A program made the position numbers and the translations under genes. A stretch of DNA of 64,000 nt, from the NCBI RefSeq assembly GCF_009389715.1, contig NC_052399.1, forward strand, positions 3,736,938 through 3,800,937. Direction: 5' to 3'. The DNA is from Phoenix dactylifera. Its lineage: Eukaryota; Streptophyta; Magnoliopsida; Arecales; Arecaceae. Shown one piece after another: positions 24,174 to 59,982 of the stretch (its first letter is position 1; each line of letters begins with the position of its first letter). Below the pieces are notes generated by a model, which saw only the letters and a program-made list of their open reading frames with translations, was not told where the DNA came from and did no database searches.

Positions 24174-24309
24174 CCTTCGGTATACTCTTGGATGAGTGTC
24201 AAACTGGGCCGGGCATGCTACTGGACCTCATGCTGCCAAGGGAAAGTGAAGACAGCATTGGATGAGATGCCTGAAACCTCAAAGGGACTAATCAGCTGCA
24301 GCGAAGGTC

Positions 24310-26220
24310 AACCCATGCAACTAAAAGCCGCACCTCAGAGGATAAAAAGAAAGCTAACCAGAACCTAACACAAACTAAGATAACCATTTCATTGTAACCT
24401 CCTCTTCTCGGTTCGACCAACTTTAAGGATAAAACCGGGCCGTCATGGTGACCCTGGGTTGACCAAATCAGGTGTACGTGAACCCAACTTACCTTACAAC
24501 TCATGTTGCAATCCACTTCTGTACATAACCGCAGAAATAGAACTCAGGTCAAAATCCTTCCTCCCATTTCAACCAAAAAAAAAAGCGGAACGATCCAAAA
24601 AAAAAAAAAAATCTGGGCCATGCTGGGGGGCACAAAAGGCATTTTGCTTTATTATTTTAACTAATCCTGGAGCTTGTCTGGCAAGGACTCGATCGATGTA
24701 GGTTTTAAAGATGCAGAAAATTCAAAGCTCGTAGAAAATCAGTTTATACAGAATTTAATATATATAGAAAATTTATGCACGAAGCTGCAGTAAATTTTTG
24801 CTTAAATTTTTAAATATGCAGAAAATTTCTGCATACTTTTTAAGGTTGCAGAAAAATCTATTTGCACTATTTTTAGAGCAAGATAAATTTCTCAAAAGAC
24901 TGATTTTTGTAAGGAAAATAATCTCTAAAAGAAAAAGATACAAACTTTCTGATTTTATACAATCAAAGTAAATTTAATTCTATACAACCAAAGTAGATTC
25001 GATAAACAACTAGTAGTAATTTCTAGTATAATCAAGATCTTGCTCTTAAACTATAGGAATAAATATACCTAGAAATCACTATTTATGCTTTGAGATAATA
25101 AATTGAAATAAAACTTTATATCTACAAAATTTTGAAAATTAGTTGGTTGAAAGCTTGGTTGGATCGAGGCGTGTGATGTATACTACCCCAAGAACGTGAT
25201 TTGTCCCCTACGTGTGGGTCTACAACGATCTCATCCCAAAGGTATAACAAACTAGTTCAGCTCAATTCTCTTGTAACATGCACAATTGCTAGAAGGCTAG
25301 ACTTGAGTGACTTCCTTCGGTTGCCTAGAAAAGAAGGAAGAAGAAAAGGTGGAGGAAAAATGAAAAAGCAGAAAGTGTGGAAGCAGAGTCTCTATCAGAT
25401 TGCAATAGAGCGCACAAGAGAAAAGTGGATGTGTAAGTGTGTTTCTAAAGCAATGGACCCAAAATTTATTTACAGACTTTGCTGAGATGATCGAGAAGAC
25501 GGATGGTTTCTAAGATATGTGATGTTTCGAAAATACCATATCTCTTCGAAAACCAACATTTTTTTTTGAAGAGAGTTGTAACTCTTCGAAAAGAGGCATC
25601 CGGCAAAAAGTATTTTAATACATTTAAAATAAAATTTTGCGAATAAGGTTGGTTTAATTTTTTTTTCAAATTAAAACTACAACATCTTCTTGTTTGTGTG
25701 GGTTTCTCCAGTTTTTCATATTCTGCATAATCTTTTCTTTTCTTATTGACTAAAATATTTATTATCTTGAATTAGAAGGTTGACGGATACTCCTTCCATC
25801 CAAGAAACCAATGAAAGGCGACATTAAGGAAAGGAAAAAAAATTAGATACTCTCTGCTTCTTTTCGGACTATTTTTTATCTGCTGTTTTCCCATGTTGTT
25901 CCTTTATACTTCATATACTCTCTGCACGTCGCACAGTTTTTAGCCCTTGCATCCACAAAAGAAGTGTACAAATCACAGCAGACACATTTCGTGAAAAAAT
26001 TCAAAGAAAGAAATGCTATCATCATTGTCAACATACCTAACTTACAGGGTACAAAAAATTAATACAAGGTAAAGAGAGAGAAAAAAAATAGCTGACTGAT
26101 TGCCACTGACAAATTCTTCTTTTGATATTTCGCATAGCATCGTGTATCCTTCTGCTTACATTTGATGGTGAGGTCGATCCGAAATGTCACTTTTAAAAAA
26201 TAATTTAATCTACCAAGTAA
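24310..26220. other. PDR copy 1 downstream flank
   Basis: Non-coding flank repeated at 40480-42390. It contains short open frames with no recognisable product. A region near 25470-25620 with an ATCTCTTCGAAAACC block and GTAACTCTTCGAAAAGAGGC resembles a decayed LTR. I cannot define its ends. Confidence 0.4.
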
Positions 26221-26228
26221 ATACTTCT

Positions 26229-29200
26229 CTACCTTCTCTGGAAGTTTAGTACTTTTATTGTCAACCCAAAAAGAAAAGCAAAGAGCACGGCAAATCCAAC
26301 GACAACCACTGCAACCACTCCCAAGAAGTCGTGTCTGAATCCAAGATGTGACCTCACATATTCAGCCACAGTTTGGCTGCCGTCCTCAAATGTGCGCTCG
26401 ATATCCCCGAACTGTGAAGCGACCAAGCCGTACAATGTCCATGCAACGGGGTTTGCCCAGAAATACCACCTCCACCACACAGGCATACTCTGTAAGAAGG
26501 GCAAAGTTTTTTTTGTTTTGTTTTAGTTCATCGTTATTTCAGGAAACCCATCTTAAATAGAGCAATGTGAATCAGAACTTACCGGTCGTGGGATAATGAA
26601 TCCAGAGAAAAGATTCCACATTCCAACAAAAGCAGCAGCTATGATGGCAGCTATGTTGATGTTGGGAGTCATGCCCACCGTCATCATTCCATAAAATGTG
26701 AAGTATAGTAGGGTGAAGTACATAAAAAACAGGTACCAAAAGAACTTGGCAGCCGTCCATTCAAACGCAATCATTGCGTACACTATAACCCCATATACCA
26801 GACACTGAACCAAGACATAGGGAACCTCGATCAACACCTGCAGAGGCCACAGAAGAACATGGTTAGCTGATCTTGATTTGTTTCAAATGCACGTACGTTG
26901 GATGTGGTAAGGTGATGTTGAAGTAATTACTTGTCCAAGAGCATATGGCAAAGCTGAATACATTCCTGCTGCCCTCTCTCTATAGAAGACGGTTCGTTCG
27001 ATGGACACAACGGGCTGGACGGATGTGGAGTTCGAAACCCCGATGAACAGAACAGCAGCGTACATGGAACCCATTGCATTAGCTAAATCCTGTTGATCCC
27101 TCCTGCAACAATGTTTTTGTCAGACAAATCATATTTGGAAACATCAGGGGATTATATATAGCAGACTTGGGTCGTCTCAGAATTACTACTTACGTTTTGG
27201 TACCAAGATCCCAGAATATCGTCCCAAACATCAAGGCTATCATTGTTGTGAAGAAAAACCTGACAGCAGTATATGGAGGATTCCTCCAATACGACAGTCG
27301 TTGTTTCCATAGGCATGCCAAGCATTGTGTGAGGAATGGTCGAGAGTACTGAGTTGGGAAGTGAAGATCGCTGGAGCCAGGAGGAGGTATGCTCAATTCC
27401 TTGATCAAAGCTTTGTTTCTCCTGCAACACAATATAGAGTAAAAGAGTTAATTGTTTCTAGGTAATACCTCCATCAGAAATTAATCCGTTGGAACAGCAG
27501 CCAAACTACTTACTGATACAATTCCGAATTCTTGTACACCTCGCTGAAACTAACCCCCAATATTTCTTCTTGTGATTGTGTTGTTACTTCCAGCATCCAT
27601 GTTGCAGGATTATAGCCGTCTTGTATCTTGCTCACTCCTTCGATTTGCTGATAATATAAATGCAAAGTTACAGACGTCGTCGCGTCGCTCGAATATAAAA
27701 TGTTTCAGGAGCTAAAACTCTGAAAACCAAAAACGATGCAACCTTTCTGCTGTCCATTTTCTTACCTCAAAGTAATCGATCAGATGACAAGAATGTCGCC
27801 CCAACGGGCCTACGTATATCTCTTCTCCTCCTCGCTTCAATAGAAACAGCTGCAGTTGGAAGTAACAAAGCATCAGATACCAGCAACATTTACAAATATG
27901 TCATTTTACGAATACCTGCGAGAGAATAAAGAAAACCTATCGATCCGACCGATCTTCTCACCTCATCAAAAGCTTCAAATATGTCGATGCTAGGCTGATG
28001 AATAGTGCACACTACAGTCCTCCCGGTGTCCACAGTGTTTCTCACTGTCCTCATTACAATGGCGGCCGCCCTTGCATCCAGTCCAGAGGTAGGCTCGTCC
28101 ATGAATATTATGGAGGGGTTAGCAACAAGCTCTACTGCAATTGTGAGCCTTTTGCGCTGCTCGGTTGATAACCCATTCACACCAGGCAGTCCTACCAAGG
28201 CTTCCCTCAATGATGTTAGCTCTACAAGTTCCATGACCTCTTCCACGAACATCTGCACAGAAGATTAATTGTTACAATTAAATTCCTGAAGTTATAAGCT
28301 GAAAGTTGCACAAGAATGGACCCATATGTTCGGCCAACCTTTCTTGTTGCAGAATCTACATCGGCAGGTAAGCGAAGCCATGCAGAGTAAACAAGGGATT
28401 CATAAACCGTGACATGAGGAGAGTGGATATCATTCTGTTCACAATATCCTGATATACGAGCGAAAGTTTCTTGCTTCTTGGGGTAGCCAGATATGGTAAT
28501 GCTTCCATCTATGTATCCACCTGTTTTCCTTCCAGCCAATACATCCATGAGTGTAGTTTTGCCTGCTCCACTTACACCCATTAGAGCTGTAAGTACTCCT
28601 GGCCTGAAAGATCCACTCACTCCCTTTAGGAGCTCCAGTCGGTCTCCCTCAACACCTTGTGCTGTCATTTCCTGGAAATACATATTCCATTAAGGATTGG
28701 TTATTTTGGCAAGAAATAAGTATACCGCATAAAAAAAAAAGTTCGGTGAAATACAGACAGAGATTTATCTTTTACGCAAATGCAGATACCTGTGGCATGT
28801 CCACCGAGTATGTTATATTGTCAAATGTGATGGAAAGGGGGGTGAATGGGAGGACCATTCCTTTCTTATTCTGATTAAGATTAGCAGCAGCATCTGTCAT
28901 GCTTGATGAGGCATCATTATTCCTACTTCCACGAGCACTTTCTGCATCGGAACATGTAAACTAAGATGATAAACAGCGAGAGGGAACTGTCAGAAATTGA
29001 TGAGCAAACTAGTAATGTTATAACTGATTTACTTTTGGATGTGGAATCTCTGCTAATGCTCCTTTCTGTAAGTGATGATGGCTCCATTTCTCCTGTTATA
29101 TTTGCATATTTTTCATTCAATGCCTCTTCAGATAAACTTGGCTGAGCTTTCCCAAATGCTGCAAGCATTTCAAAGTAAGGTATGGGGCAAGGTATCTCAA

Positions 29201-32200
29201 TGTGGACCTCTTTAAGCATCACAATATGCGAGATTGCTACATAGAGTTGATGCCAAGATATAGGGGGAGAACTACTTACGCTTGATATAGGTGAGCGCCA
29301 CAGTGAAAAGGATATTGAAAAGGATCATATATCCGGCCAATGCACCCGTACCAATCCAGTACCATTTGGCCTCTGTAAAAATTCCACGGGACTTCAAGAC
29401 TTCCACTCCTAGTGTTTCATTATGATTCAGAAGAATCTATAACACAGATAAATCAAAGGAAATGCACTTCAGTTCGCTGAAGACATACGATGATATTATT
29501 TACTTGATTGTTGTTTGACATAGATAATTGAAGTAACTGCAGGGGAGTGACTGTAAATGATTTGAAAGCACTCTGTGTCTGTGAAATAAGGACAAATTTA
29601 CTGATAAATGATACCAAGTTTACTTGTTTCTAGTGGTCAAACCAATGTGTATCTGGTTGTCATCTGCTAGCGCATACATTTTTTGAGCAATTATTAGCAC
29701 ATGAATTAGAATAATTGCAATCATCCTTAGAACTTCATGTAGAAGGATATATTACTTAAGCTTTTAAATAATTTTGGATTCCTGTTATTGTCCATCAGAG
29801 TTATTAAAATCATCATATCAATTTATATGTTGATGAAATCTAATGTATTTGATTGTTTAGTTATGATTTATCTGATCCAATCATCCTGTTTGGGAGAAAA
29901 AAAAACAGAGAAAAAAAAGAAAATCATATATAGCATTGACCTTTCAGAAAAGCAAGTGAACTTACATGGCTCCAACTGTGTCCAAGAAATTCATTTGTTG
30001 CAAGTGCATTCTGTGCGTACATCATGGGTGAGATCCAGTAACCCCATATCCACCACTTTTTCACATCCTCTGCCGAAGGGAACAATGAAAATCGATTAAA
30101 TATCAACACTCTGAAACCAGTTGAGGTAAATCGTAACACTTGGCACGGTAAACTGACAAAGAAACAATTTGCTATCGTCTAAAGAGCAAGAACCTACGGT
30201 GCGACAAAATGAATCCACCCAACACTATAACCACGAGCAATGAAAACGCTCCAAAAGTATTTGCAACGATCATGTTTCTACCCAGTGCAGCGATGAAACG
30301 GAATAACCCGGAAGCCATTTGATTGACAAGTAGGAGAAGCAGATACTGCTTAAATAGCCTGTACATGGAAGCGAGAGTAATGCTGTTATTTCTGAGAAGC
30401 CAGAATGGGAGGATCACTTAAATCAGGCTGGAGGTCAAGCTGTGGCAGTTGCAAAGCAAAGAAATACTGACCTTCCGACATTTGGATCAAATCCTATCAC
30501 GTAGTAAGTCATGAACACCCAGACACCAACTTCCACAAATGTTATGGGTATCTTGAGAATCCATGAGGGCACGGCATAAGTCCATGCTGGATAAAAGCGG
30601 TAGTCCCTTTGCTTGAAGAAAACAGGCAGCTTTGCAATGGCCAATGAAAGTTCAGAGAATCCATTGAACATAATCATCATCATTGCGAAGAAAAGGGCAC
30701 CCATATAAAGCCCTCCATCGTTTGTGCTATCGCGGTGCATGTTGGTTCGCAGGAAGAGTGTCATTGTGATCGTAGCCATGAACATGAGCTGATGAGGAGA
30801 GAAATGCAAAATGATAAACCGCTGGCACTTGTTTGTGGAATAGAAGCTCTAAGTTGCAGCGGAGGTGATTCACTTACCTGGAAGGCCCTAAAGAAATAGA
30901 CAAATGAGTTCCGCTTCATCAGCAACAACTCTCTCCAGATGTTAGCTTTCAATAGTTCCTTGCTGCTAGCACCGTATTTTGTAGTTGCGAGAGCAGCAGG
31001 GTGGCTGCTGCTCTTGTCGAACGGGACGGAGAGTTCATTTCCTAAGTTCCGACCCGCATGGAACGACTGGAATGCCTCTGAAAATTCCCTGACAGGCACA
31101 AACCTGTAAGGCTCGTCATGACGCATCCAATACTGCGGCTGATCTTTCTTTGATGTTACCTACATTCCCAAAAATAAATTATCATCTTGGACAATCTTGT
31201 AATCCAAAAGAAAAAAAATAAATGTTGGTGAAGGGAATCTTTCTGGTTTTTGGCTTACTTCCTGCAAGAAGTCTGCAACACCTTTCCTCTCAGGGCATCT
31301 GAAGCCCATGGACTCAAAGAACTCAAGCACCTGCTCGCGGGGACCTTGGTACACAACATGGCCATCTGAAAGAAGTATTATGTCGTCGAAGAGGTCGTAG
31401 GTCTCTGGTGCTGGCTGAAGCAGAGAAATGACGGCTGTCCCGTCGAGAATGTGAATGGATTGCCTGAGCGAGTTCACGATCTGGAAAGTTGTGGAACTGT
31501 CCAGACCTGTGGATATCTCATCCATGAATAGAGCTCTCGCTGGCCCGACAATCATCTCTCCTGTATCACAAGTTGAAGACCCAGAGGGTCAGATCAGATC
31601 AGCATCCCCAAAGATTTTTTTTTTTTTTTTAGATCAAGGGAAGCTTAGCCACCCAAAATTTATTCAATTGAGACAGCATCCTAGAAGATCACATGATCTT
31701 GGAGGTTGGATTTGGCAGTTCGTCTACCTGTTGTGACACGCTTCCTTTGTCCTCCTGAGATGCCTCTCAGCATTTCATCTCCTACCATGGTATCAGCGCA
31801 CACTTCCAATCCTAAAATCTGTTACAGATGGCAAATAAGACGACCTTCTTTCTAGTTTCTTTGAAAGTGTTCTTCCTCTATCTTTGCTTTTTTGTCAAAT
31901 TAATCATCAAAACAGAAGTTTGCACCATGAAAAAACATAACAAAAGGGTCACAGATCAGGGGCAGAGAGCGGCACATACCTTCAGTATATAGTCTGTGAT
32001 TACATTGGTCTCTTGGTTTCCCATTGCAGCTGCCTGATAAGTAGAAAAAGGAAAAATCTTATTGCGCTTTCTGTCCGCTCGATGTCAAGTTAATCAGCTT
32101 ATGAGAAGCAATTTGCTATGGATTAACAACCATGGTGACACTCCGGTAAGTTTTAATTCGCCAAAGCTATCAATTTCTTGAGAGTTTGGGAAGATGAACA

Positions 32201-34063
32201 GAGCAGCTCTGCTTGCTAAGAGGATGCTTATCTCACCTTCATGAAGATATCGATATCGGGGTCTGGCTTGATGTTTGCCTGCTTTTCCCTTCTTGCTAGC
32301 TCGGCCAGCATATCTGCATATTGTCACGTAAGAAGATCTATCGGAATTGTATGAAAAATTATGGAGTAATTTTCTACGTCGAAACAATTTGTGGAGCGAT
32401 ACTGACCGTAACGAGTCCCTACTCCCTGACATCTCGCAGAGAAAGATAAGGTTTCACGCACTGTCATCTCCCCGATGTGGAGATCATGTTGACTGATATA
32501 TGCAGCTGTTCTCTCGGGCATGAACTCATCCATCCCATGGCCATTGTAAGTTACTCTTCCCGAAACCTGTTTTGTGTTTCAGAAAGTTGGAAATCTTATA
32601 GCAGCATTGAGAGCATCTATAGAAATTAAAATTAAGATACAGAGCGAATGAATCTCCTGACCTTTAGATCCGACTCGAGCTTTCCGGCCAACGCCAATAA
32701 CAAAGTCGTCTTCCCCGACCCTGGTGGACCCAGGAGCAAAGTCATCCTACAAAATAGAAGGAACATAATTTAAAAATTTCAGATGCAGAAACGAAATTGG
32801 AACGAGATGTTTGGTATCTAAATCTGAAGCAAACGATATCATACCTGCGGGGCTTAATGATTCCGCTAACGTCATGAAGGATCTCTACTGGTCTCTTCCT
32901 ACTTGGTACTACATGCAGGAGATTGGCAAAGCCCTTGGACCAGAAAAAAAGAGAAGCAAACCCCTCAGTTATAAAGGTACTCACCGAACCTCATAGATAG
33001 CTTTTAATTTTATTTATTTATGAGTTTTTTTTTTGTTTTACATAAATATCTTTCTAAATATATAAAAATTACATGAATATTCTCGTAAAATTACTATTTG
33101 TATGTATTTTTTTTTTTTGTATGTGTATACATACTATCCAATGTTATTAAAAAATAAATAGCTTAAAACTAAAATGGCTGAAATACTATTACGTGTAGAT
33201 ATGCAAAAAAAAAAAAAAAAGTTGTAAGTGTATTTTAGTCATTTTAAATTTTAAATTACTTATTTTTTAATGGCATTAGATGATATAGGTACATATATTT
33301 AAAAAAAATATAGATGCAAAATAAATATTTTATGGAGAAATACATGCAAATAATAATTTTAGAAGGATATTCATACAATTTTATATATTTTGAAGGATTT
33401 ATATGTAAAAACTTTTTCGTTTATTTATTTTTGTCTCTTCTCTTTCCTTCTCAATAGAGTATTTTAGTTATCCGAAATACCTCGAGGACGTTGACTGTAG
33501 CATTGACGAATGAAGGCAAGCCTCTGTTGCCCACATAAGCTTCTGCTTCGATGTTGAGGTGCTCGTAACGCACTTCGATCGTCGGAAGTTCAATTCCAAC
33601 TCTAGAAAAAGGAACAAAAGAAAAGAGGAAATCAGGAAATCGGAATTTAGATAAATCCTCTAGCAGCCAAAGCATTCAAGTAAGGCAAAGGGGAAGGATG
33701 TGCTTGTCCGTACTGATCCATGCGGTTCCTAAGCTTCAACAAGAACTTCTCGTTGTCCTCGTCGGCAACCCGGACCAGCCTTTCGATCAAGTTCTTCCTC
33801 TCTTGATAGCTGAGGTTCTCTATATCAATTTCCCTGGGCTGCCCTTCATTTATAGCAAGTATGCCCCTCCGCAGCCTGTTATAGGTCGGCAGCTTCTCCA
33901 GCGCAGCCCATTTCAGGGCCTCCTCGTCATCTTCCTCTCGCGACGATCTCGAGAAGACATCTTCTCCTCTCATCCAGATGGATGCACTCCCCGCCCTGGT
34001 GCTGCTCGCCCTTATGCTACTCGCCCTTATGCTACCCACCCTGGTTTTCTCCCCTGTCTCCAT
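26229..34063 (-). CDS. Full-size ABCG/PDR transporter, copy 1
   Basis: A pleiotropic-drug-resistance ABC transporter with the reverse layout NBD1-TMD1-NBD2-TMD2, in about 24 exons and roughly 1,450 residues. Exon 1 is 34063-33714, exon 2 33601-33481, exon 3 32933-32845; the last ends at the TAG at 26229-26231 after LNFQRR. NBD1 has GPPGSGKTT (Walker A, ~32715), [12 protein letters not shown] (signature, ~31760) and [18 protein letters not shown]1 exons lie at ~30790-29280. NBD2 has [20 protein letters not shown] (~28560), [19 protein letters not shown] and [19 protein letters not shown]2 spans ~27420-26229. The N-terminus [13 protein letters not shown] and [20 protein letters not shown] are typical of plant PDRs, most like the ABCG40/NtPDR1 group. 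Such proteins pump terpenoids, hormones or defence compounds over the plasma membrane; the substrate cannot be read here. No break seen. A GTG nine bases upstream is in frame, but the ATG at 34063 is preferred. Confidence 0.93.
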
Positions 34064-34100
34064 TTCTTTCACCGTGCTTTCTCTCTTCCCTTCACCCTCT

Positions 34101-34262
34101 ATCAGAGAGGTAGGAAAACAGTCCTCCCGCCGTGCCGAGCCGCTACGAAGTTTATGGGATTGTGAAGCCAGAGATGGAGCTATCCGAGAGGTAGGAAACA
34201 GTCCGTCCTGCCGTGCCGAGCCGCTACGAAGTTTATGGGATTGTGAAGCCAGAGATGGAGCG
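34101..34262. repeat. 81-bp tandem duplication in PDR copy 1 leader
   Basis: Two tandem copies begin ATCAGAGAGGTAGGAAAACA (34101) and ATCCGAGAGGTAGGAAACAG (34182). Each contains GTGCCGAGCCGCTACGAAGT and GTGAAGCCAGAGATGGAGC. They lie 40-200 bases before the PDR start, in the probable 5' UTR. Copy 2 has the same pair (50267 and 50347); copy 3 has one unit only (~60770). Confidence 0.85.
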
Positions 34263-35053
34263 AGGAGAGGCGAGAAGGGTGGAGGGGAGGGAGATGGGTT
34301 GCGTCCGCTGGTTGTGTTGTGTGACAGGGGTGGGGAAAGGGAGGAAACAGGGGCTTAAATAGGGTCGGTTGGTGGTGAGGACTAGGAGGGAGGGCGGCTT
34401 CTGGAACTTCAAAAATAAGGGCCTCGTGTTTCAAATAGTCGGTCAAGCTCTTCCACCTTTGAAATGGCTTAGCGTGCGAAGGCTTTTCTTTTTCATTAAA
34501 TTAAAAAAAAGGCTCAGTTTTCTCGTGTTTAGTCCTTCTGAACGATGCCGACAACGATGCATAAGCTGGTTTTTTTCCCCCTTGTGGTTAATCCCAATAT
34601 CCCCCAGCTCCCGGGAAAGACCCGGATTTGGAAACTACCTCAACGTCCCGTGGCAAGAGTTCAGAAATTTCTTCTAGGCAAGGACAGAGAAAGCGGCGAA
34701 GTCTACATTTTTAACGTGAGTTTGAAATCTTTAGGAAATGTCCCTAATAAATTGGGCTTGGAGACCCAACCGTACATCACAATCATAGGTGCTACTAGAT
34801 TCTGGGTTTTCTGGATTTCCGCCAGAGTTAGATCTTATTTAGATTATGCTAGGCTCCTATTAGATCCGTGTCTAACAAGCCGACTTTGAGGTGGGATCTT
34901 CCTCTCTTTTTTTCCCCATAATTCGCCGCTAAATCCAGTATTATTAGTGTTCGGTTGTTACCATTCTTACCCCAAGTTATCTTTCAACTACAGCCGTGTT
35001 GACCATCTAGAGAGATGCTGCCAGCCATCGGCCATGATGCGGTGGTCAACAGA
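34263..35053. promoter_or_regulatory. PDR copy 1 upstream region
   Basis: This is the probable core promoter and upstream DNA of PDR copy 1, repeated at 50430-51190. On the minus strand, near 34355, the sequence reads CCCTATTTAAGCCCC, a plausible TATA-type element about 290 bases before the ATG. No other gene is supported. Confidence 0.45.
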
Positions 35054-35214
35054 AGTATTATAGGGGAAACTAACGACCGGTCCATTTATTGACTGGTCTT
35101 TAATGTTTAATCCCCGTTGACTGATTGTTTAACAACCGGTCCAACCATATTTCAACATTCCAACATGAGATGAAAATGCCCCCGCCTATACCGATCTCCC
35201 ATTCCCACTGAAGA

Positions 35215-35660
35215 AGGGGAAGAAAAAGGCCGCCGCGGCCCCCAGCCGGCGGCCGGCCGCGGGCCGCCCCCTCCCGTGGCCAACGCCGGCCCCAGCCCGC
35301 CCCCACCCGAGACCCCTTCCGCAGCTGCCACGGCCCTGCCCCCATGGTCTCCTTATGAAGAAGGGAAAGAAAAAGACCGCCGCCAACCCGCCCCCTCCTG
35401 AGCGCCCTCCCGCGGCCGCCGCCGGCCGCGGCCCGCCCCTCCTGAGCGCCCTCCCGCGGCCGCCGCGGCCCCGCCCCCTTCCGCGCCGCCGGGAATGCCC
35501 CCGCCCCCACGGTCCCCTTCCGAAGAAGGGAAGAAAAAGGCCGCCGCCGGCCACGGCTAGCCCCCTCTCGAGCCTCCTCCCGCAGCCGCCACTGGCCACG
35601 GCCCGCCCCCTCCCGAGCCCCCTCCCACAGCCGCCATGGCCCGGCCCCCTTCCTACGCCG
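35215..35660. repeat. GC-rich direct repeats in the left foldback arm
   Basis: Near-repeats of GAAGAAGGG(A/G)AGAAAAAGGC followed by CGCCGCCGGCC and CCCCCTCCCGAG recur about three times. Apparent Pro/Arg/Gly-rich open frames on both strands come from this low-complexity composition and are not genes. The matching right arm is 37560-37800. Confidence 0.8.
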
Positions 35661-35764
35661 CCTGCCTCGCGGAGGAGAAGAAATAAGAAGGGAGAAGGGA
35701 AGAAGAGAAGAACAAAGAAAAGAAAAAGAAAAAAAAAGAAGAAAAGGAAAGAAAAAAAAGAAAA

Positions 35765-35814
35765 GAAAAGGAGAAAAAATAAATAAATAAATAAATAAAT
35801 GCATAAATAAATAC

Positions 35815-35871
<57 letters not shown>

Positions 35872-36074
35872 TGAATGAAGAAATAAATAAATAAATATAT
35901 AATATATTGTAATAAAATAAAATAATAAATAAATAAATAAATAAATAAAGGCAAGGAAAAAAGAAGAAATGGAAACAAAGAAGAAAATAAAAGAAAATAA
36001 AAAAAGGAAGAAAAGGAAATTAAATAAGTAAATACACACACACACACACATATATATATATATGAATGAACAAA

Positions 36075-36113
<39 letters not shown>

Positions 36114-36175
36114 GATAATAAATAAGTATATTGTAATGAAATAAAATAATAAACGAATAAATAAATAAATAAATA
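35765..36175. repeat. Microsatellite cluster (AT)n and (AAAT)n
   Basis: It contains an AT dinucleotide tract at about 35818-35867, a CA then TA tract at 36034-36063, and several AAAT/ATAA runs, the longest about 36068-36113. Mirror-image TTTA tracts occur in the right arm at 37128-37145, 37339-37405 and 37425-37460. Confidence 0.95.
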
Positions 36176-36339
36176 AAGCTTGGAACTCAATTCATATATC
36201 CTCGAACATAGTTAACTCACCATTGCAATTAGGTTAGTAAGTTTGGTACACAAATAATATAGTATGGTACACATTTAAGTAAGCTTGGCTTAATCAATGT
36301 TTGAATACTTAATTTGGCCTCGCATGCAGTTAAATCTTC

Positions 36340-38248: not shown

Positions 38249-38388
38249 GTCACTGTAAAGATCCGAATTGGGCCCATCCTTGGGCCCAACGAATTGAAGT
38301 CGGCAAGGGATGCCGACTTCAGTTTGTTCATCATGGTCATCCCTATGATGAACACGCCGGCCGAATGGCCAGCGAAACCCCCGCACCC

Positions 38389-38419
<31 letters not shown>

Positions 38420-40476: not shown

Positions 40477-42390
40477 CCCATGCAACTAAAAGCCGCACCG
40501 CAGAGGATAAAAAGAAAGCTAACCAGAACCTAAAACAAACTAAGATAACCATTTCATTGTAACCTCCTCTTCTAGGTTCGACCAACTCTAAGGATCAAAC
40601 CGGGCCGTCATGGTGACCCTGGGTTGACCAAATCAGGTGTACGCGAACCCAACTTACCTTACAACTCATGTTGCAATCCACTTCTGTACATAACCGCAGA
40701 AATAGAACTCAGGTCAAAATCCTTCCTCCCATTTCAACCAAAAAAAAAAGCGGAACGATCCAAAAAAAAAAAAATCTGGGCCATGCTGAGGGGGCACAAA
40801 AGGCATTTTGCTTTATTATTTTAACTAATCCTGGAGCTTGTCTGGCAAGGACTCGATCGATGTAGGTTTTAAAGATGCAGAAAATTCAAAGCTTGTAGAA
40901 AATCAGTTTATACAGAATTTAATATATATAGAAAATTTATGCACGAAGCTGCAGTAAATTTTTGCTTAAATTTTTAAATATGCAGAAAATTTCTGCATAC
41001 TTTTTAAGGTTGCAGAAAAATCTATTTGCACTATTTTTAGAGCAAGATAAATTTCTCAAAAGACTGATTTTTGTAAGGAAAATAATCTCTAAAAGATAAA
41101 GATACAAACTTTCTGATTTTATACGATCAAAGTAAATTTAATTCTATACAACCAAAGTAGATTCGATAAACAACTGGTAGTAATTTCTAGTATAATCAAG
41201 ATCTCGCTCTTAAACTATAGGAATAAATATACCTAGAAATCACTATTTATGCTTTGAGATAATAAATTGAAATAAAACTTTATATCTACAAAATTTTGAA
41301 AATTAGTTGGTTGAAAGCTTGGCTGGATCGAGGCGTGTGATGTATACTACCCCAAGAACGTGATTTGTCCCCTACGTGTGGGTCTACAACGATCTCATCC
41401 CAAAGGTATAACAAACTAGTTTAGCTCAATTCTCTTGTAACATGCACAATTGCTAGAAGGCTAGACTTGAGTGACTTCCTTCGGTTGCCTAGAAAAGAAG
41501 GAAGAAGAAAAGGTGGAGGAAAAATGAAAAAGCAGAAAGTGTGGAAGCAGAGTCTCTATCAGATTGCAATAGAGCGCACAAGAGAAAAGTGGATGTGTAA
41601 GTGTGTTTCTAAAGCAATGGACCCAAAATTTATTTACAGACTTTGCTGAGATGATCGAGAAGACGGATGGTTTCTAAGATATGTGATGTTTCGAAAATAC
41701 CATATCTCTTCGAAAACCAACATTTTTTTTTGAAGAGAGTTGTAACTCTTCGAAAAGAGGCATCCGGCAAAAAGTATTTTAATACATTTAAAATAAAATT
41801 TTGCGAATAAGGTTGGTTTAATTTTTTTTTCAAATTAAAACTACAACATCTTCTTGTTTGTGTGGGTTTCTCCAGTTTTTCATATTCTGCATAATCTTTT
41901 CTTTTCTTATTGACTAAAATATTTATTATCTTGAATTAGAAGGTTGACGGATACTCCTTCCATCCAAGAAACCAATGAAAGGCGACATTAAGGAAAGGAA
42001 AAAAAATTAGATACTCTCTGCTTCTTTTCGGACTATTTTTTATCTGCTGTTTTCCCATGTTGTTCCTTTATACTTCATATACTCTCTGCACGTCGCACAG
42101 TTTTTAGCCCTTGCATCCACAAAAGAAGTGTACAAATCACAGCAGACACATTTCGTAAAAAAATTCAAAGAAAGAAATGCTATCATCATTGTCAACATAC
42201 CTAACTTACAGGGTACAAAAAATTAATACAAGGTAAAGAGAGAGAAAAAAAATAGCTGACTGATTGCCACTGACAAATTCTTCTTTTGATATTTCGCATA
42301 GCATCGTGTATCCTTCTGCTTACATTTGATGGTGAGGTCGATCCGAAATGTCACTTTTAAAAAATAATTTAATCTACCAAGTAAATACTT
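40477..42390. other. PDR copy 2 downstream flank
   Basis: This is a near-identical repeat of 24310-26220, with the same LTR-like remnant (41640-41790) and no recognisable gene. Confidence 0.5.
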
Positions 42391-42392
42391 CT

Positions 42393-45300
42393 CTACCTTC
42401 TCTGGAAGTTTAGTACTTTTATTGTCAACCCAAAAAGAAAAGCAAAGAGCACGGCAAATCCAACGACAACCACTGCAACCACTCCCAAGAAGTCGTGTCT
42501 GAATCCAAGATGTGACCTCACATATTCAGCCACAGTTTGGCTGCCGTCCTCAAATGTGCGCTCGATATCCCCGAACTGTGAAGCGACCAAAGCCGTACAA
42601 TGTCCATGCAACGGGGTTTGCCCAGAAATACCACCTCCACCACACAGGCATACTCTGTAAGAAGGGCAAAGTTTTTTTTGTTTTGTTTTAGTTCATCGTT
42701 ATTTCAGGAAACCCATCTTAAATAGAGCAATGTGAATCAGAACTTACCGGTCGTGGGATAATGAATCCAGAGAAAAGATTCCACATTCCAACAAAAGCAG
42801 CAGCTATGATGGCAGCTATGTTGATGTTGGGAGTCATGCCCACCGTCATCATTCCATAAAATGTGAAGTATAGTAGGGTGAAGTACATAAAAAACAGGTA
42901 CCAAAAGAACTTGGCAGCCGTCCATTCAAACGCAATCATTGCGTACACTATAACCCCATATACCAGACACTGAACCAAGACATAGGGAACCTCGATCAAC
43001 ACCTGCAGAGGCCACAGAAGAACATGGTTAGCTGATCTTGATTTGTTTCAAATGCACGTACGTTGGATGTGGTAAGGTGATGTTGAAGTAATTACTTGTC
43101 CAAGAGCATATGGCAAAGCTGAATACATTCCTGCTGCCCTCTCTCTATAGAAGACGGTTCGTTCGATGGACACAACGGGCTGGACGGATGTGGAGTTCGA
43201 AACCCCGATGAACAGAACAGCAGCGTACATGGAACCCATTGCATTAGCTAAATCCTGTTGATCCCTCCTGCAACAATGTTTTTGTCAGACAAATCATATT
43301 TGGAAACATCAGGGGATTATATATAGCAGACTTGGGTCGTCTCAGAATTACTACTTACGTTTTGGTACCAAGATCCCAGAATATCGTCCCAAACATCAAG
43401 GCTATCATTGTTGTGAAGAAAAACCTGACAGCAGTATATGGAGGATTCCTCCAATACGACAGTCGTTGTTTCCATAGGCATGCCAAGCATTGTGTGAGGA
43501 ATGGTCGAGAGTACTGAGTTGGGAAGTGAAGATCGCTGGAGCCAGGAGGAGGTATGCTCAATTCCTTGATCAAAGCTTTGTTTCTCCTGCAACACAATAT
43601 AGAGTAAAAGAGTTAATTGTTTCTAGGTAATACCTCCATCAGAAATTAATCCGTTGGAACAGCAGCCAAACTACTTACTGATACAATTCCGAATTCTTGT
43701 ACACCTCGCTGAAACTAACCCCCAATATTTCTTCTTGTGATTGTGTTGTTACTTCCAGCATCCATGTTGCAGGATTATAGCCGTCTTGTATCTTGCTCAC
43801 TCCTTCGATTTGCTGATAATATAAATGCAAAGTTACAGACGTCGTCGCGTCGCTCGAATATAAAATGTTTCAGGAGCTAAAACTCTGAAAACCAAAAACG
43901 ATGCAACCTTTCTGCTGTCCATTTTCTTACCTCAAAGTAATCGATCAGATGACAAGAATGTCGCCCCAACGGGCCTACGTATATCTCTTCTCCTCCTCGC
44001 TTCAATAGAAACAGCTGCAGTTGGAAGTAACAAAGCATCAGATACCAGCAACATTTACAAATATGTCATTTTACGAATACCTGCGAGAGAATAAAGAAAA
44101 CCTATCGATCCGACCGATCTTCTCACCTCATCAAAAGCTTCAAATATGTCGATGCTAGGCTGATGAATAGTGCACACCACAGTCCTCCCGGTGTCCACAG
44201 TGTTTCTCACTGTCCTCATTACAATGGCGGCCGCCCTTGCATCCAGTCCAGAGGTAGGCTCGTCCATGAATATTATGGAGGGGTTAGCAACAAGCTCTAC
44301 TGCAATTGTGAGCCTTTTGCGCTGCTCGGTTGATAACCCATTCACACCAGGCAGTCCTACCAAGGCTTCCCTCAATGATGTTAGCTCTACAAGTTCCATG
44401 ACCTCTTCCACGAACATCTGCACAGAAGATTAATTGTTACAATTAAATTCCTGAAGTTATAAGCTGAAAGTTGCACAAGAATGGACCCGTATGTTCGGCC
44501 AACCTTTCTTGTTGCAGAATCTACATCGGCAGGTAAGCGAAGCCATGCAGAGTAAACAAGGGATTCATAAACCGTGACATGAGGAGAGTGGATATCATTC
44601 TGTTCACAATATCCTGATATACGAGCGAAAGTTTCTTGCTTCTTGGGGTAGCCAGATATGGTAATGCTTCCATCTATGTATCCACCTGTTTTCCTTCCAG
44701 CCAATACATCCATGAGTGTAGTTTTGCCTGCTCCACTTACACCCATTAGAGCTGTAAGTACTCCTGGCCTGAAAGATCCGCTCACTCCCTTTAGGAGCTC
44801 CAGTCGGTCTCCCTCAACACCTTGTGCTGTCATTTCCTGGAAATACATATTCCATTAAGGATTGGTTATTTTGGCAAGAAATAAGTATACCGCATAAAAA
44901 AAAAAAGTTCGGTGAAATACAGGCAGAGATTTATCTTTTACGCAAATGCAGATACCTGTGGCATGTCCACCGAGTATGTTATATTGTCAAATGTGATGGA
45001 AAGGGGTGTGAATGGGAGGACCATTCCTTTCTTATTCTGATTAAGATTAGCAGCAGCATCTGTCATGCTTGATGAGGCATCATTATTCCTACTTCCACGA
45101 GCACTTTCTGCATCGGAACATGTAAACTAAGATGATAAACAGCGAGAGGGAACTGTCAGAAATTGATGAGCAAACTAGTAATGTTATAACTGATTTACTT
45201 TTGGATGTGGAATCTCTGCTAATGCTCCTTTCTGTAAGTGATGATGGCTCCATTTCTCCTGTTATATTTGCATATTTTTCATTCAATGCCTCTTCAGATA

Positions 45301-48300
45301 AACTTGGCTGAGCTTTCCCAAATGCTGCAAGCATTTCAAAGTAAGGTATGGGGCAAGGTATCTCAATGTGGACCTCTTTAAGCATCACAATATGCGAGAT
45401 TGCTACATAGAGTTGATGCCAAGATATAGGGGGAGAACTACTTACGCTTGATATAGGTGAGCGCCACAGTGAAAAGGATATTGAAAAGGATCATATATCC
45501 GGCCAATGCACCCGTACCAATCCAGTACCATTTGGCCTCTGTAAAAATTCCACGGGACTTCAAGACTTCCACTCCTAGTGTTTCATTATGATTCAGAAGA
45601 ATCTATAACACAGATAAATCAAAGGAAATGCACTTCAGTTCGCTGAAGACATACGATGATATTATTTACTTGATTGTTGTTCGACATAGATAATTGAAGT
45701 AACTGCAGGGGAGTGACTGTAAATGATTTGAAAGCACTCTGTGTCTGTGAAATAAGGACAAATTTACTGATAAATGATACCAAGTTTACTTGTTTCTAGT
45801 GGTCAAACCAATGTGTATCTGGTTGTCATCTGCTAGCGCATACATTTTTTGAGCAATTATTAGCACATGAATTAGAATAATTGCAATCATCCTTAGAACT
45901 TCATGTAGAAGGATATATTACTTAAGCTTTTAAATAATTTTGGATTCCTGTTATTGTCCATCAGAGTTATTAAAATCATCATATCAATTTATATGTTGAT
46001 GAAATCTAATGTATTTGATTGTTTAGTTATGATTTATCTGATCCAATCATCCTGTTTGGGAGAAAAAAAAACAGAGAAAAAAAAGAAAATCATATATAGC
46101 ATTGACCTTTCAGAAAAGCAAGTGAACTTACATGGCTCCAACTGTGTCCAAGAAATTCATTTGTTGCAAGTGCATTCTGTGCGTACATCATGGGTGAGAT
46201 CCAGTAACCCCATATCCACCACTTTTTCACATCCTCTGCCGAAGGGAACAATGAAAATCGATTAAATATCAACACTCTGAAACCAGTTGAGGTAAATCGT
46301 AACACTTGGCACGGTAAACTGACAAAGAAACAATTTGCTATCGTCTAAAGAGCAAGAACCTACGGTGCGACAAAATGAATCCACCCAACACTATAACCAC
46401 GAGCAATGAAAACGCTCCAAAAGTATTTGCAACGATCATGTTTCTACCCAGTGCAGCGATGAAACGGAATAACCCGGAAGCCATTTGATTGACAAGTAGG
46501 AGAAGCAGATACTGCTTAAATAGCCTGTACATGGAAGCGAGAGTAATGCTGTTATTTCTGAGAAGCCAGAATGGGAGGATCACTTAAATCAGGCTGGAGG
46601 TCAAGCTGTGGCAGTTGCAAAGCAAAGAAATACTGACCTTCCGACATTTGGATCAAATCCTATCACGTAGTAAGTCATGAACACCCAGACACCAACTTCC
46701 ACAAATGTTATGGGTATCTTGAGAATCCATGAGGGCACGGCATAAGTCCATGCTGGATAAAAGCGGTAGTCCCTTTGCTTGAAGAAAACAGGCAGCTTTG
46801 CAATGGCCAATGAAAGTTCAGAGAATCCATTGAACATAATCATCATCATTGCGAAGAAAAGGGCACCCATATAAAGCCCTCCATCGTTTGTGCTATCGCG
46901 GTGCATGTTGGTTCGCAGGAAGAGTGTCATTGTGATCGTAGCCATGAACATGAGCTGATGAGGAGAGAAATGCAAAATGATAAACCGCTGGCACTTGTTT
47001 GTGGAATAGAAGCTCTAAGTTGCAGCGGAGGTGATTCACTTACCTGGAAGGCCCTAAAGAAATAGACAAATGAGTTCCGCTTCATCAGCAACAACTCTCT
47101 CCAGATGTTAGCTTTCAATAGTTCCTTGCTGCTAGCACCGTATTTTGTAGTTGCGAGAGCAGCAGGGTGGCTGCTGCTCTTGTCGAACGGGACGGAGAGT
47201 TCATTTCCTAAGTTCCGACCCGCATGGAACGACTGGAATGCCTCTGAAAATTCCCTGACAGGCACAAACCTGTAAGGCTCGTCATGACGCATCCAATACT
47301 GCGGCTGATCTTTCTTTGATGTTACCTACATTCCCAAAAATAAATTATCATCTTGGACAATCTTGTAATCCAAAAGAAAAAAAATAAATGTTGGTGAAGG
47401 GAATCTTTCTGGTTTTTGGCTTACTTCCTGCAAGAAGTCTGCAACACCTTTCCTCTCAGGGCATCTGAAGCCCATGGACTCAAAGAACTCAAGCACCTGC
47501 TCGCGGGGACCTTGGTACACAACATGGCCATCTGAAAGAAGTATTATGTCGTCGAAGAGGTCGTAGGTCTCTGGTGCTGGCTGAAGCAGAGAAATGACGG
47601 CTGTCCCGTCGAGAATGTGAATGGATTGCCTGAGCGAGTTCACGATCTGGAAAGTTGTGGAACTGTCCAGACCTGTGGATATCTCATCCATGAATAGAGC
47701 TCTCGCTGGCCCGACAATCATCTCTCCTGTATCACAAGTTGAAGACCCAGAGGGTCAGATCAGATCAGCATCCCCAAAGATTTTTTTTTTTTAGATCAAG
47801 GGAAGCTTAGCCACCCAAAATTTATTCAATTGAGACAGCATCCTAGAAGATCACATGATCTTGGAGGTTGGATTTGGCAGTTCGTCTACCTGTTGTGACA
47901 CGCTTCCTTTGTCCTCCTGAGATGCCTCTCAGCATTTCATCTCCTACCATGGTATCAGCGCACACTTCCAATCCTAAAATCTGTTACAGATGGCAAATAA
48001 GACGACCTTCTTTCTAGTTTCTTTGAAAGTGTTCTTCCTCTATCTTTGCTTTTTTGTCAAATTAATCATCAAAACAGAAGTTTGCACCATGAAAAAACAT
48101 AACAAAAGGGTCAAAGATCAGGGGCAGAGAGCGGCACATACCTTCAGTATATAGTCTGTGATTACATTGGTCTCTTGGTTTCCCATTGCAGCTGCCTGAT
48201 AAGTAGAAAAAGGAAAAATCTTATTGCGCTTTCTGTCCGCTCGATGTCAAGTTAATCAGCTTATGAGAAGCAATTTGCTATGGATTAACAACCATGGTGA

Positions 48301-50229
48301 CACTCCGGTAAGTTTTAATTCGCCAAAGCTATCAATTTCTTGAGAGTTTGGGAAGATGAACAGAGCAGCTCTGCTTGCTAAGAGGATGCTTATCTCACCT
48401 TCATGAAGATATCGATATCGGGGTCTGGCTTGATGTTTGCCTGCTTTTCCCTTCTTGCTAGCTCGGCCAGCATATCTGCATATTGTCACGTAAGAAGATC
48501 TATCGGAATTGTATGAAAAATTATGGAGTAATTTTCTACGTCGAAACAATTTGTGGAGCGATACTGACCGTAACGAGTCCCTACTCCCTGACATCTCGCA
48601 GAGAAAGATAAGGTTTCACGCACTGTCATCTCCCCGATGTGGAGATCATGTTGACTGATATATGCAGCTGTTCTCTCGGGCACGAACTCATCCATCCCAT
48701 GGCCATTGTAAGTTACTCTTCCCGAAACCTGTTTTGTGTTTCAGAAAGTTGGAAATCTTATAGCAGCATTGAGAGCATCTATAGAAATTAAAATTAAGAT
48801 ACAGAGCGAATGAATCTCCTGACCTTTAGATCCGACTCGAGCTTTCCGGCCAACGCCAATAACAAAGTCGTCTTCCCCCGACCCTGGTGGACCCAGGAGC
48901 AAAGTCATCCTACAAAATAGAAGGAACATAATTTAAAAATTTCAGATGCAGAAACGAAATTGGAACGAGAAGTTTGGTATCTAAATCTGAAGCAAACGAT
49001 ATCATACCTGCGGGGCTTAATGATTCCGCTAACGTCATGAAGGATCTCTACTGGTCTCTTCCTACTTGGTACTACATGCAGGAGATTGGCAAAGCCCTTG
49101 GACCAGAAAAAAAGAGAGCAAACCCCTCAGTTATAAAGGTACTCACCGAACCTCATAGATAGCTTATAATTTTATTTATTTATGAGTTTTTTTTTTTGTT
49201 TTACATAAATATCTTTCTAAATATATAAAAATTACATGAATATTCTCGTAAAATTACTATTTGCATGTATTTTTTTTTTTGTATGTGTATACATACTATC
49301 CAATGTTATTAAAAAATAAATAGCTTAAAACTAAAATGGCTGAAATACTATTACGTGTAGATATGCAAAAAAAAAAAAAAAAAAGTTGTAAGTGTATTTT
49401 AGTCATTTTAAATTTTAAATTACTTATTTTTTAATGGCATTTAGATGATATAGGTACATATATTTAAAAAAAAATATAGATGCAAAATAAATATTTTATG
49501 GAGAAATACATGCAAATAATAATTTTAGAAGGGTATTCATACAATTTTATATATTTTGAAGGATTTATATGTAAAAACTTTTTCGTTTATTTATTTTTGT
49601 CTCTTCTCTTTCCTTCTCAATAGAGTATTTTAGTTATCCGAAATACCTCGAGGACGTTGACTGTAGCATTGACGAATGAAGGCAAGCCTCTGTTGCCCAC
49701 ATAAGCTTCTGCTTCGATGTTGAGGTGCTCGTAACGCACTTCGATCGTCGGAAGTTCAATTCCAACTCTAGAAAAAGGAACAAAAGAAAAGAGGAAATCA
49801 GGAAATCGGAATTTAGATAAATCCTCTAGCAGCCAAAGCATTCAAGTAAGGCAAAGGGGAAGGATGTGCTTGTCCGTACTGATCCATGCGGTTCCTAAGC
49901 TTCAACAAGAACTTCTCGTTGTCCTCCTCGGCAACCCGGACCAGCCTTTCGATCAAGTTCTTCCTCTCTTGATAGCTGAGGTTCTCTATATCAATTTCCC
50001 TGGGCTGCCCTTCATTTATAGCAAGTATGCCCCTCCGCAGCCTGTTATAGGTCGGCAGCTTCTCCAGCGCAGCCCATTTCAGGGCCTCCTCGTCATCTTC
50101 CTCTCGCGACGATCTCGAGAAGACATCTTCTCCTCTCATCCAGATGGATGCACTCCCCGCCCTGGTGCTGCTCGCCCTTATGCTACTCGCCCTCATGCTA
50201 CCCACCCTGGTTTTCTCCCCTGTCTCCAT
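42393..50229 (-). pseudogene. ABCG/PDR transporter copy 2, two frameshifts
   Basis: Exon structure is the same as PDR copy 1 and sequence is nearly identical through exons and introns, but with two single-base insertions in coding sequence. In NBD1 the Walker A codons contain five C on the plus strand (48875-48879) where copies 1 and 3 have four, so GPPGSGKTT reads GPPGSGED and goes out of frame. In the last exon an additional A near 42590 (GACCAAAGCC against GACCAAGCC) shifts the frame about 70 residues before the natural end, altering the TMD2 tail. A point change also gives EFVPERT for EFMPERT in exon 5. With the first break in ATP-binding site 1, the product would be a short N-terminal fragment. 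Both differences are homopolymer-length changes, so assembly error must be excluded before calling it dead. Confidence 0.8.
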
Positions 50230-50266
50230 TTCTTTCACCCTGCTTTCTCTCTTCCCTTCACCCTCT

Positions 50267-50430
50267 ATCAGAGAGGTAGGAAACAGTCCTCCCGCCGTGC
50301 CGAGCCGCTACGAAGTTTATAGGATTGTGAAGCCTGAGATGGAGCTATCAGAGAGGTAGGAAACAGTCCGTCCTGCCGTGCCGAGCCGCTACGAAGTTTA
50401 TGGGATTGTGAAGCCAGAGATGGAGCGAGG
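50267..50430. repeat. 80-bp tandem duplication in PDR copy 2 leader
   Basis: Two copies of the ATCAGAGAGGTAGGAAACAG unit start at 50267 and 50347, matching the pair upstream of copy 1. The pair therefore predates the copy 1/copy 2 duplication. Confidence 0.85.
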
Positions 50431-51367
50431 AGAGGCGAGAAGGGTGGAGGGGAGGGAGATGGGTTGCGTCCGCTGGTTGTGTTGTGTGACAGGGGTGGGG
50501 AAAGGGAGGAAACAGGGGCTTAAATAGGGTCGGTTGGTGGTGAGGACTAGGAGGGAGGGCGGCTTCTGGAACTTCAAAAATAAGGGCCTCGTGTTTAAAT
50601 AGTCGGTCAAGCTCTTCCGCCTTTGAAATGGCTTGGCGTGCGAAGGCTTTTCTTTTTCATTAAATTAAAAAAAAGGCTCAGTTTTCTCGTGTTTAGTCCT
50701 TCTGAACGATGCCGACAACGACGCATAAGCTGGTTTTTTTCCCCCTTGTGGTTAATCCCAATATGCCCCAGCTCCCGGGAAAGACCCGGATTTGGAAACT
50801 ACCCCAACGTCCCGTGGCAAGAGTTCAGACTTTTCTTCTAGGCGAGGACAGATAAAACGACGAAGTCCTCATTTTTAACGTGAGTTTGAAATCTTTAGGA
50901 AATCTCCCTAATAAATCGGGCTGGGAGACCCAACCGTATATCACAATCACGGGTGCTACTAGATTCTGGGTTTTCTGGATTTCCGCCTGAGTTAGATCCT
51001 ATTTAGATTATGCTAGGCTTCTAACAAGCCGAGTTTGAGGTTGGATCTTCCTTCTTTATTTTTTCCCCATAATTCGTCGCTAAATCCAGTATTATTAGTG
51101 TTCGGTTGTTACTATTCTTACCCCAAGTTATCTTTCAACTACAGCCGTGTTGACCATCTAGAGAGATGCTGCCAGCCATCGCCCATGATGCGGTGGTCAA
51201 CAGAAATATTATATTATGTTTTTATATGTAACGACGGTACAATTAATTAAGTAGAACATTTTTTTTTTATAAAGGAAACGGGAAGGCTTTTAAGCTGTCC
51301 CCAGTTTAAGCATAGCTCATTAATTAGAACTAAAAAAGTCAAGATCTTGGAACGGCATTTAGGCTGG

Positions 51368-52700: not shown

Positions 52701-52876
52701 AGTTAATACAAGGTAAAGAGACAGAAAAAAAAAAAAAAGCTGACTGATTGCCACTGACAAATTCTTCTTTTGATATTTCGCATAGCATCGTGTATCCTTC
52801 TGCTTACATTTGATGGTGAGGTCGATCCGAAATGTCACTTCCAAAAAATAATTTAATCTACCAAGTAAATACTTCT

Positions 52877-59949: not shown

Positions 59950-59982
<33 letters not shown>

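What the first reader, a model, noticed from the sequence alone, without database searches (positions are those of the whole stretch)
24174..51367. Recent tandem duplication with a readable junction at about 38115
Two ~11-kb units carrying PDR copies 1 and 2 align across exons, introns and flanks. The junction GGCTGGACCTTC joins the unit end (GGCTGG at ~51362) to the unit start (CACCTTCGG at ~24172), sharing only about two bases. Such a border points to end joining or template switching rather than unequal crossing over between long repeats. Removing the two exclusive insertions gives about 11,005 and 11,029 bp, an independent check on the borders.
Basis: seen in the sequence. Interest (0 to 1): 0.72.

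Follow-up and report, generated by a model that had tools for sequence, protein, structure and literature searches.

The report
Old tandem duplication with rejuvenated core
Two neighbouring copies of a plant transporter gene look like a recent duplication, but their outer ends differ about twenty times more than the genes between them, so the duplication is probably older and the gene cores were made alike again later by copying between neighbours.

Summary
The tandem duplication is there in this sequence: unit 1 is 24173-38114 and unit 2 is 38115-51367. Both insertions are transposable elements with target-site duplications and an empty site in the other unit.

"Recent" does not hold for the whole unit. 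Divergence is 0.26% over 24480-34454 (26/9965), but 3.9% at the left edge (12/307) and 5.5% at the right edge (39/707). No permutation of 500 came near this contrast. Introns and synonymous sites share the low value, so coding constraint does not explain it.

Best reading: an older duplication joined without visible homology, followed by recent homogenisation of the roughly 10-kb core by ectopic gene conversion. A third PDR copy (52696-61009) shows conversion-like patches too. The strict junction microhomology is 0 bp, not about 2.

The genes are full-size plant ABCG/PDR transporters on the minus strand. Copies 1 and 3 are open; copy 2 carries two frameshifts as assembled. The closest known case is Arabidopsis halleri HMA4. 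A recent duplication followed by allelic exchange, and haplotype mis-assembly, remain possible. Neither reads nor the rest of the genome could be consulted.

The parts
24173..38114 (.). Unit 1 of the tandem duplication (11,005 bp without its insertion and one copy of the target-site duplication)
   Evidence: self-BLAST, border read-out, alignment without inserts
38115..51367 (.). Unit 2 of the tandem duplication (11,030 bp without its insertion)
38109..38120 (+). Tandem junction GGCTGG|ACCTTC; 0 bp strict microhomology
24173..24479 (.). Diverged left edge of unit 1 (12/307 against unit 2, 3.9%)
   Evidence: segmentation
24480..34454 (.). Homogenised core of unit 1, matching 40645-50618 in unit 2 (26/9965, 0.26%)
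34455..38114 (.). Diverged right edge of unit 1 (39/707 outside the insertion, 5.5%)
26229..34063 (-). PDR/ABCG copy 1: 24-exon model, open frame of 4,386 bases including stop, 1,461 aa
   Evidence: splice-site model, Pfam
42393..50229 (-). PDR/ABCG copy 2: same 24 exons; two 1-bp insertions shift the frame (exon 4 at 48875 and exon 24 at 42589)
52877..60737 (-). PDR/ABCG copy 3: same 24 exons, open frame of 4,371 bases; BLAST homology to units 1 and 2 only over about 52696-61009
35063..37990 (.). 2,928-bp insertion exclusive to unit 1, flanked by a 9-bp duplication (AGTATTATA/AATATTATA); imperfect inverted ends; probably a non-autonomous Mutator-like element, about 1.0 kb upstream of the copy 1 ATG
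38254..40471 (.). 2,218-bp insertion exclusive to unit 2, TG...CA ends, 5-bp duplication GTCAC (38249-38253 and 40472-40476), no internal direct repeat found: solo LTR
31300..31951 (.). 652 bp without a difference between copy 1 and copy 3 (17.9 expected from exon and non-exon rates): candidate conversion tract with the third copy
34099..34261 (.). 81-bp tandem repeat upstream of the copy 1 ATG, also in copy 2 (50265-50426), single in copy 3

Best explanation
A block of about 11 kb holding a PDR-type ABCG transporter gene with about 1.1 kb of upstream and 2.1 kb of downstream sequence was duplicated head to tail by a join without visible homology (end joining, or template switching during replication). 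This happened long enough ago for its free edges to differ by 4-6%. Each unit then received one transposable element near an end: a Mutator-like element in unit 1 and a retrotransposon, now a solo LTR, in unit 2. These limited uninterrupted homology between the units to about 24311-35062. Inside that stretch, ectopic homologous exchange recently copied about 10 kb from one unit to the other, resetting the gene, its introns and near flanks to about 0.26%. The edges next to and beyond the elements kept diverging. The third gene exchanges shorter patches with the first two. Shown: structure, junction, insertions with empty sites, uneven divergence, identical runs with copy 3. Inferred: conversion as the process, the order of events, and the fence role of the elements.
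For: Segmentation by likelihood prefers three segments by BIC (810.9, against 926.6 for one rate and 815.3 for four segments): 12/307, 26/9965, 39/707. The two-change-point log-likelihood gain is 75.8; the highest of 500 permutations is 15.5. Introns differ at 8/3443 sites against 43/1096 upstream of the ATG (Fisher p 1.2e-19). Synonymous divergence between copies 1 and 2 is 0.0030, so protein constraint is not the cause. The right edge is high on both sides of the insertion (30/593 inside, 9/114 outside). Transitions at the edges show no strong one-sided bias (right 15 with T/A in unit 1 against 10 the other way, left 3 against 2), so methylation decay spreading from one element is not clearly indicated. 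Exchange with copy 3: the longest identical run is 652 bp (copy 1) and 792 bp (copy 2), 0/2000 permutations each; introns alone 308 and 394 bp, 0/5000 each. Change points lie 170 bp inside the LTR insertion site and 608 bp inside the Mutator-like site.
Against: A conversion tract of about 10 kb is long. One haplotype without reads or outgroup cannot separate conversion from two crossovers or from allelic exchange. No outgroup covers the edges, so a locally raised mutation rate near the insertions cannot be measured. Both elements sit in the inner block around the junction, which the allelic-exchange rival predicts and this reading does not. The low rate also runs about 1.6 kb past the point where homology with copy 3 ends, so copy 3 was not a partner there. 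Inside the core the transitions lean one way (13 with T/A in unit 1 and C/G in unit 2, against 4), which this reading does not explain. The longest identical run between copies 1 and 2 (2,431 bp) is not clearly beyond chance given their few differences (64/2000).
Confidence: 0.58

Rival explanations
1. Recent duplication plus allelic exchange. The duplication arose recently on a haplotype already about 5% diverged from another. Recombination then joined its inner part (from within unit 1, across the junction, into unit 2) to outer flanks of the other haplotype. The edges then measure allelic, not duplication, divergence, and the two elements may predate the duplication.
For: Predicts three segments with sharp changes, which BIC prefers, equal edge divergence (3.9% and 5.5%, Fisher p 0.35), and both elements in the inner block 34455-40645, as seen. 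One event could do it.
Against: Both exchange points must fall within about 300 and 700 bp of the ends of an 11-kb unit. Needs haplotypes about 5% apart. Leaves the patches shared with copy 3 to a separate process.
Confidence: 0.16
2. Expansion and contraction: an unequal crossover between the old units made three, and a second removed one, leaving unit 2 as left end of unit 2, core of unit 1 and right end of unit 2. Same history as the best reading, with crossovers instead of conversion.
For: Gives the same divergence profile without a 10-kb conversion tract.
Against: Needs two exchanges, each close to an end of the homologous stretch.
Confidence: 0.12
3. Assembly artefact: units 1 and 2 are two haplotypes of a single locus placed in a row.
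For: Both elements could be presence/absence alleles; two frameshifting 1-bp homopolymer expansions sit in copy 2 and 12 of 14 indels in the core lengthen or shorten a run of one base, as sequencing error could give.
Against: No N in the window; the join shows no overlap, although assemblers join by overlap, so a chimeric read would be needed. Patches shared with copy 3 are not explained.
Confidence: 0.09
4. One reading: one recent duplication, with edges mutating faster because of nearby element insertions.
For: The high edges do lie next to the two insertions.
Against: Needs a roughly 15- to 20-fold rate difference over several hundred bases on both sides; no strong one-sided transition bias at the edges.
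Confidence: 0.05

Closest known systems
HMA4 tandem triplication of Arabidopsis halleri (PMC3749932; abstract and the section on ectopic gene conversion read)
   Same: Three tandem transporter genes; coding parts homogenised by ectopic gene conversion, while promoter segments behave differently.
   Different: There it is shown by population sampling and linked to dosage selection (and one individual also shows exchange between two promoters); here one haplotype, another transporter family, one copy frameshifted, and element insertions near the limits of the homogenised core.
Plant full-size ABCG (PDR) transporter genes
   Same: Two nucleotide-binding and two membrane regions with the plant PDR-associated domain; recent tandem duplication of plant ABC genes is ordinary (67 tandem duplications in the seven species of PMC4358917, Table 2; passages seen).
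   Different: Nothing unusual in the proteins; species and subfamily could not be fixed here.
Tandem duplication by patch-mediated break repair in plants (recalled; the paper tried by DOI is not held)
   Same: Direct duplication with a junction that lacks long homology.
   Different: Here about 11 kb and too diverged at the borders to read the join exactly.
Gene duplicates whose flanks escape homogenisation after insertions, as in mammalian alpha-globin genes (recalled)
   Same: Homogenised gene blocks between diverged, insertion-bearing flanks.
   Different: Plant locus; the fence role is inferred, not tested.

Membership tests
Direct tandem segmental duplication | Two adjacent same-orientation copies with a shared border sequence at the junction | tested here: met
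Direct tandem segmental duplication | Presence in the organism rather than in the assembly only (spanning reads, depth) | not testable with these tools
   no reads; search of the own genome unanswered
NAHR-type duplication | Homologous repeats in register at both borders | tested here: not met
   0 bp strict overlap; best direct local match within 300 bp is out of register and marginal (11 of 300 shuffles as high); inverted 132 of 300
Concerted evolution by ectopic gene conversion | Neutral sites in the gene far more alike than flanking sites of the same duplication | tested here: met
   introns 8/3443 against 43/1096 upstream; dS 0.0030
Concerted evolution by ectopic gene conversion | Patches of excess identity between paralogues | tested here: met
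   copy 3 runs, 0/2000 and 0/5000 permutations; the copy 1-copy 2 run alone is not decisive, 64/2000
Concerted evolution by ectopic gene conversion | Network-like haplotypes or shared polymorphism in a population | not testable with these tools
   single haplotype
Plant full-size ABCG/PDR transporter | Two ABC_tran and two ABC2_membrane regions plus PDR_assoc | tested here: met
   Pfam on the copy 1 model
Mutator-like element (35063-37990) | 9-bp target-site duplication | tested here: met
   AGTATTATA/AATATTATA, one mismatch; empty site AATATTATA in unit 2
Mutator-like element (35063-37990) | Long terminal inverted repeats | tested here: inconclusive
   Imperfect inverted match that begins 26 and 54 bp inside the two ends
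Mutator-like element (35063-37990) | Transposase or relatives that carry one | not tested
Solo LTR (38254-40471) | TG...CA ends with 5-bp duplication and no second LTR | tested here: met
Solo LTR (38254-40471) | Complete relatives with two such LTRs elsewhere in the genome | not testable with these tools

The most novel reading that the evidence does not exclude
The two element insertions act as fences: by breaking homology near opposite ends of the duplicated block they confine ectopic conversion to the transporter gene. The proteins then stay alike while the promoters are free to diverge, and a copy damaged by frameshifts could be reset by its neighbours.
Probability: 0.28. Interest if true: 0.5.

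Novelty: new member of a known kind. Interest (0 to 1): 0.33.

Why it matters
It shows concretely that identity of a tandem gene pair need not date the duplication. Gene-body identity gives a date about 15 to 20 times younger than the borders of the same unit. Gene-family studies that date tandem copies by coding divergence would misplace this event if the best reading holds. The locus is also a clean natural test, with a readable junction and two insertions with empty sites, of whether transposable elements limit conversion between tandem genes.

Tried and rejected
A first global alignment of the two units with the insertions left in forced false mismatches at the edges (196 substitutions) and was replaced. 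Coding constraint as the cause of the low core was rejected because introns and synonymous sites are equally low. Methylation decay near the elements was judged unlikely for lack of a strong transition bias at the edges. Crossing over between the older PDR copies as the source of unit 2 was rejected: unit 2 carries 3' flank (40472 to about 42217) absent from copy 3, and BLAST at E 1e-10 found no homology between 51368-52695 and the unit start. A more graded profile (segments of about 1% on both sides of the core, Fisher p 0.0013 and 0.0067, chosen after looking) was not preferred by BIC, so it is not claimed. Paper searches on conversion in ABC/PDR arrays, on homogenised tandem genes and on escape from conversion after insertions were read as listings; HMA4 was the closest title, and I read only parts of that paper and passages of PMC4358917, where 'gene conversion' occurs once, in the reference list. 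A search on duplication by break repair was also read only as a listing. Species and subfamily of the genes were not determined.
Full report
What was checked. The window is 64,000 bases without N. Self-comparison confirms two adjacent, same-orientation units, 24173-38114 and 38115-51367, with the junction at 38114/38115. Each has one exclusive insertion. In unit 1 it is 35063-37990 (2,928 bp), flanked by AGTATTATA and AATATTATA, with AATATTATA once at the empty site in unit 2: a 9-bp target-site duplication as Mutator-like elements make (family rule recalled). In unit 2 it is 38254-40471 (2,218 bp), with TG...CA ends and GTCAC on both sides; unit 1 has GTCAA at the empty site. No internal direct repeat was found, so it reads as a solo LTR (rule recalled).

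The junction. Left border ...TTTTAAC|ACCTTC, right border ...GGCTGG|CCGTAG, junction ...GGCTGG|ACCTTC. The strict overlap is 0 bp both ways, not about two. No homology in register with the junction was found within 300 bp of the borders; the best local match is AT-rich and out of register (score 29; 11 of 300 windowed shuffles as high, so marginal; inverted score 23, 132 of 300). A join without homology is therefore supported, but the flanking edges have changed by 4-8% since, so one or two shared bases cannot be excluded.

The uneven divergence. Over 10,979 ungapped columns there are 77 substitutions. They are not spread evenly. The best three-segment fit is 24173-24479 with 12/307, 24480-34454 with 26/9965 and 34455-38114 with 39/707. 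The two-change-point gain in log-likelihood is 75.8, against a maximum of 15.5 in 500 permutations. Introns carry 8/3443 and exons 6/4386, but the stretch upstream of the ATG 43/1096 (p 1.2e-19). Synonymous divergence of copies 1 and 2 is 0.0030. Kimura distances are 0.053 for 34455-35062, 0.084 for 38000-38114, 0.037 and 0.043 for the two parts of the left edge, and 0.0026 for the core. With a grass-like rate of 6.5e-9 per site and year (recalled, and possibly wrong for this plant) these would be about 4 million years for the right edge and 0.2 for the core. The ratio does not depend on the rate.

The genes. All three genes lie on the minus strand. The copy 1 model has 24 exons joined at GT/AG sites and 1,461 aa, two ABC_tran and two ABC2_membrane regions and the plant PDR_assoc domain. 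Among the best 60 of 478 PDB matches of its second part are fungal CDR1-type pumps and plant and animal ABCG proteins. A few splice choices (exon 15 especially) are approximate. Mapped to the other copies, copy 3 is open (4,371 bases), while copy 2 has a 1-bp insertion in exon 4 at the P-loop (48875) and another in exon 24 (42589). Both lengthen short homopolymers, and 12 of 14 indels between the units in the core are changes in a run of one base, so sequencing error is possible. If real, copy 2 was broken after the homogenisation, since copies 1 and 3 agree against it.

The third copy. BLAST homology of copy 3 to units 1 and 2 covers only 52696-61009 (26053-34440 in unit 1). Exons differ from copy 1 at 82/4371 and introns at 131/3430, but patchily: individual introns range from 0% to 8.4%. 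The longest identical run is 652 bp with copy 1 and 792 bp with copy 2, each matched by 0 of 2000 permutations that keep exon and non-exon totals; the longest run between copies 1 and 2 themselves, 2,431 bp, was matched by 64 of 2000. In introns alone the copy 3 runs are 308 and 394 bp, 0 of 5000 each. Exchange among the three genes is therefore likely. Substitutions between copies 1 and 2 at 26060-34440, polarised by copy 3, split evenly, 8 private to each, with sites where copy 3 has a gap left out, as expected after a reset. Against an even picture, transitions in the core lean towards T/A in unit 1 and C/G in unit 2, 13 against 4; I have no explanation.

Interpretation. The simplest history that meets most of this is an older duplication without homology at the join, element insertions near opposite ends of the two units, and recent ectopic homogenisation of the core between them. 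The change points lie 170 bp inside the LTR site and 608 bp inside the Mutator-like site, as if the insertions limited pairing. That is inference. The strongest rival keeps the duplication recent and explains the edges by exchange with a haplotype about 5% away. It predicts the same three segments, and it explains why both elements sit in the inner block. It needs two exchange points very near the ends of the unit and leaves the copy 3 patches to another process. Two unequal crossovers would give the same picture as conversion. Haplotype mis-assembly is disfavoured by the overlap-free join but not excluded.

Known or new. The pattern resembles what is described for HMA4 in Arabidopsis halleri: three tandem transporter genes, concerted evolution of coding sequence by ectopic conversion, promoter segments that behave differently apart from one exchange in one individual (PMC3749932, abstract and the section on ectopic conversion read). 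Recent tandem duplication of plant ABC genes is itself common (PMC4358917, Table 2 passage). Three searches for conversion or tandem clusters in ABC/PDR genes listed no title describing this pattern (listings only), and the library omits most subscription journals. I file it as a new example of a known kind, with an unusually readable history.

Limits. Presence in the organism, the population pattern, and the identity of the species are untested.

Noticed in passing
42589 and 48875: Two 1-bp insertions shift the frame of PDR copy 2, one at the P-loop of the first nucleotide-binding domain; copies 1 and 3 are open. Real decay or homopolymer error.
   Followed up: partly
24480-34454 against 40645-50618: Transitions between the units in the core lean one way: 13 with T/A in unit 1 and C/G in unit 2, 4 the other way. 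Unexplained.
   Followed up: partly
61418-63327 (-): Two long reading frames about 0.4 kb beyond the upstream end of copy 3 homology; the upstream one (62404-63327) has DBD_Tnp_Mut and MULE transposase domains, the other has no Pfam match.
   Followed up: no
5416-6141 and 14455-14712: The same 138-bp AT-rich tandem repeat in two places about 8 kb apart, about 87-91% alike.
   Followed up: no
34099-34261, 50265-50426, 60772-60853: 81-bp repeat just upstream of the start codon, doubled in copies 1 and 2, single in copy 3.
   Followed up: partly
22505-23164 (+): Reading frame with a protein phosphatase 2C domain about 1 kb left of the border of unit 1.
   Followed up: no
38050-38051 against about 51265-51304: 40-bp presence/absence difference in the outer right edge of the units.
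   Followed up: no
433-756 (+): Reading frame that looks like the RNase H end of a copia-type retrotransposon (recognised from memory; no Pfam hit).
   Followed up: no
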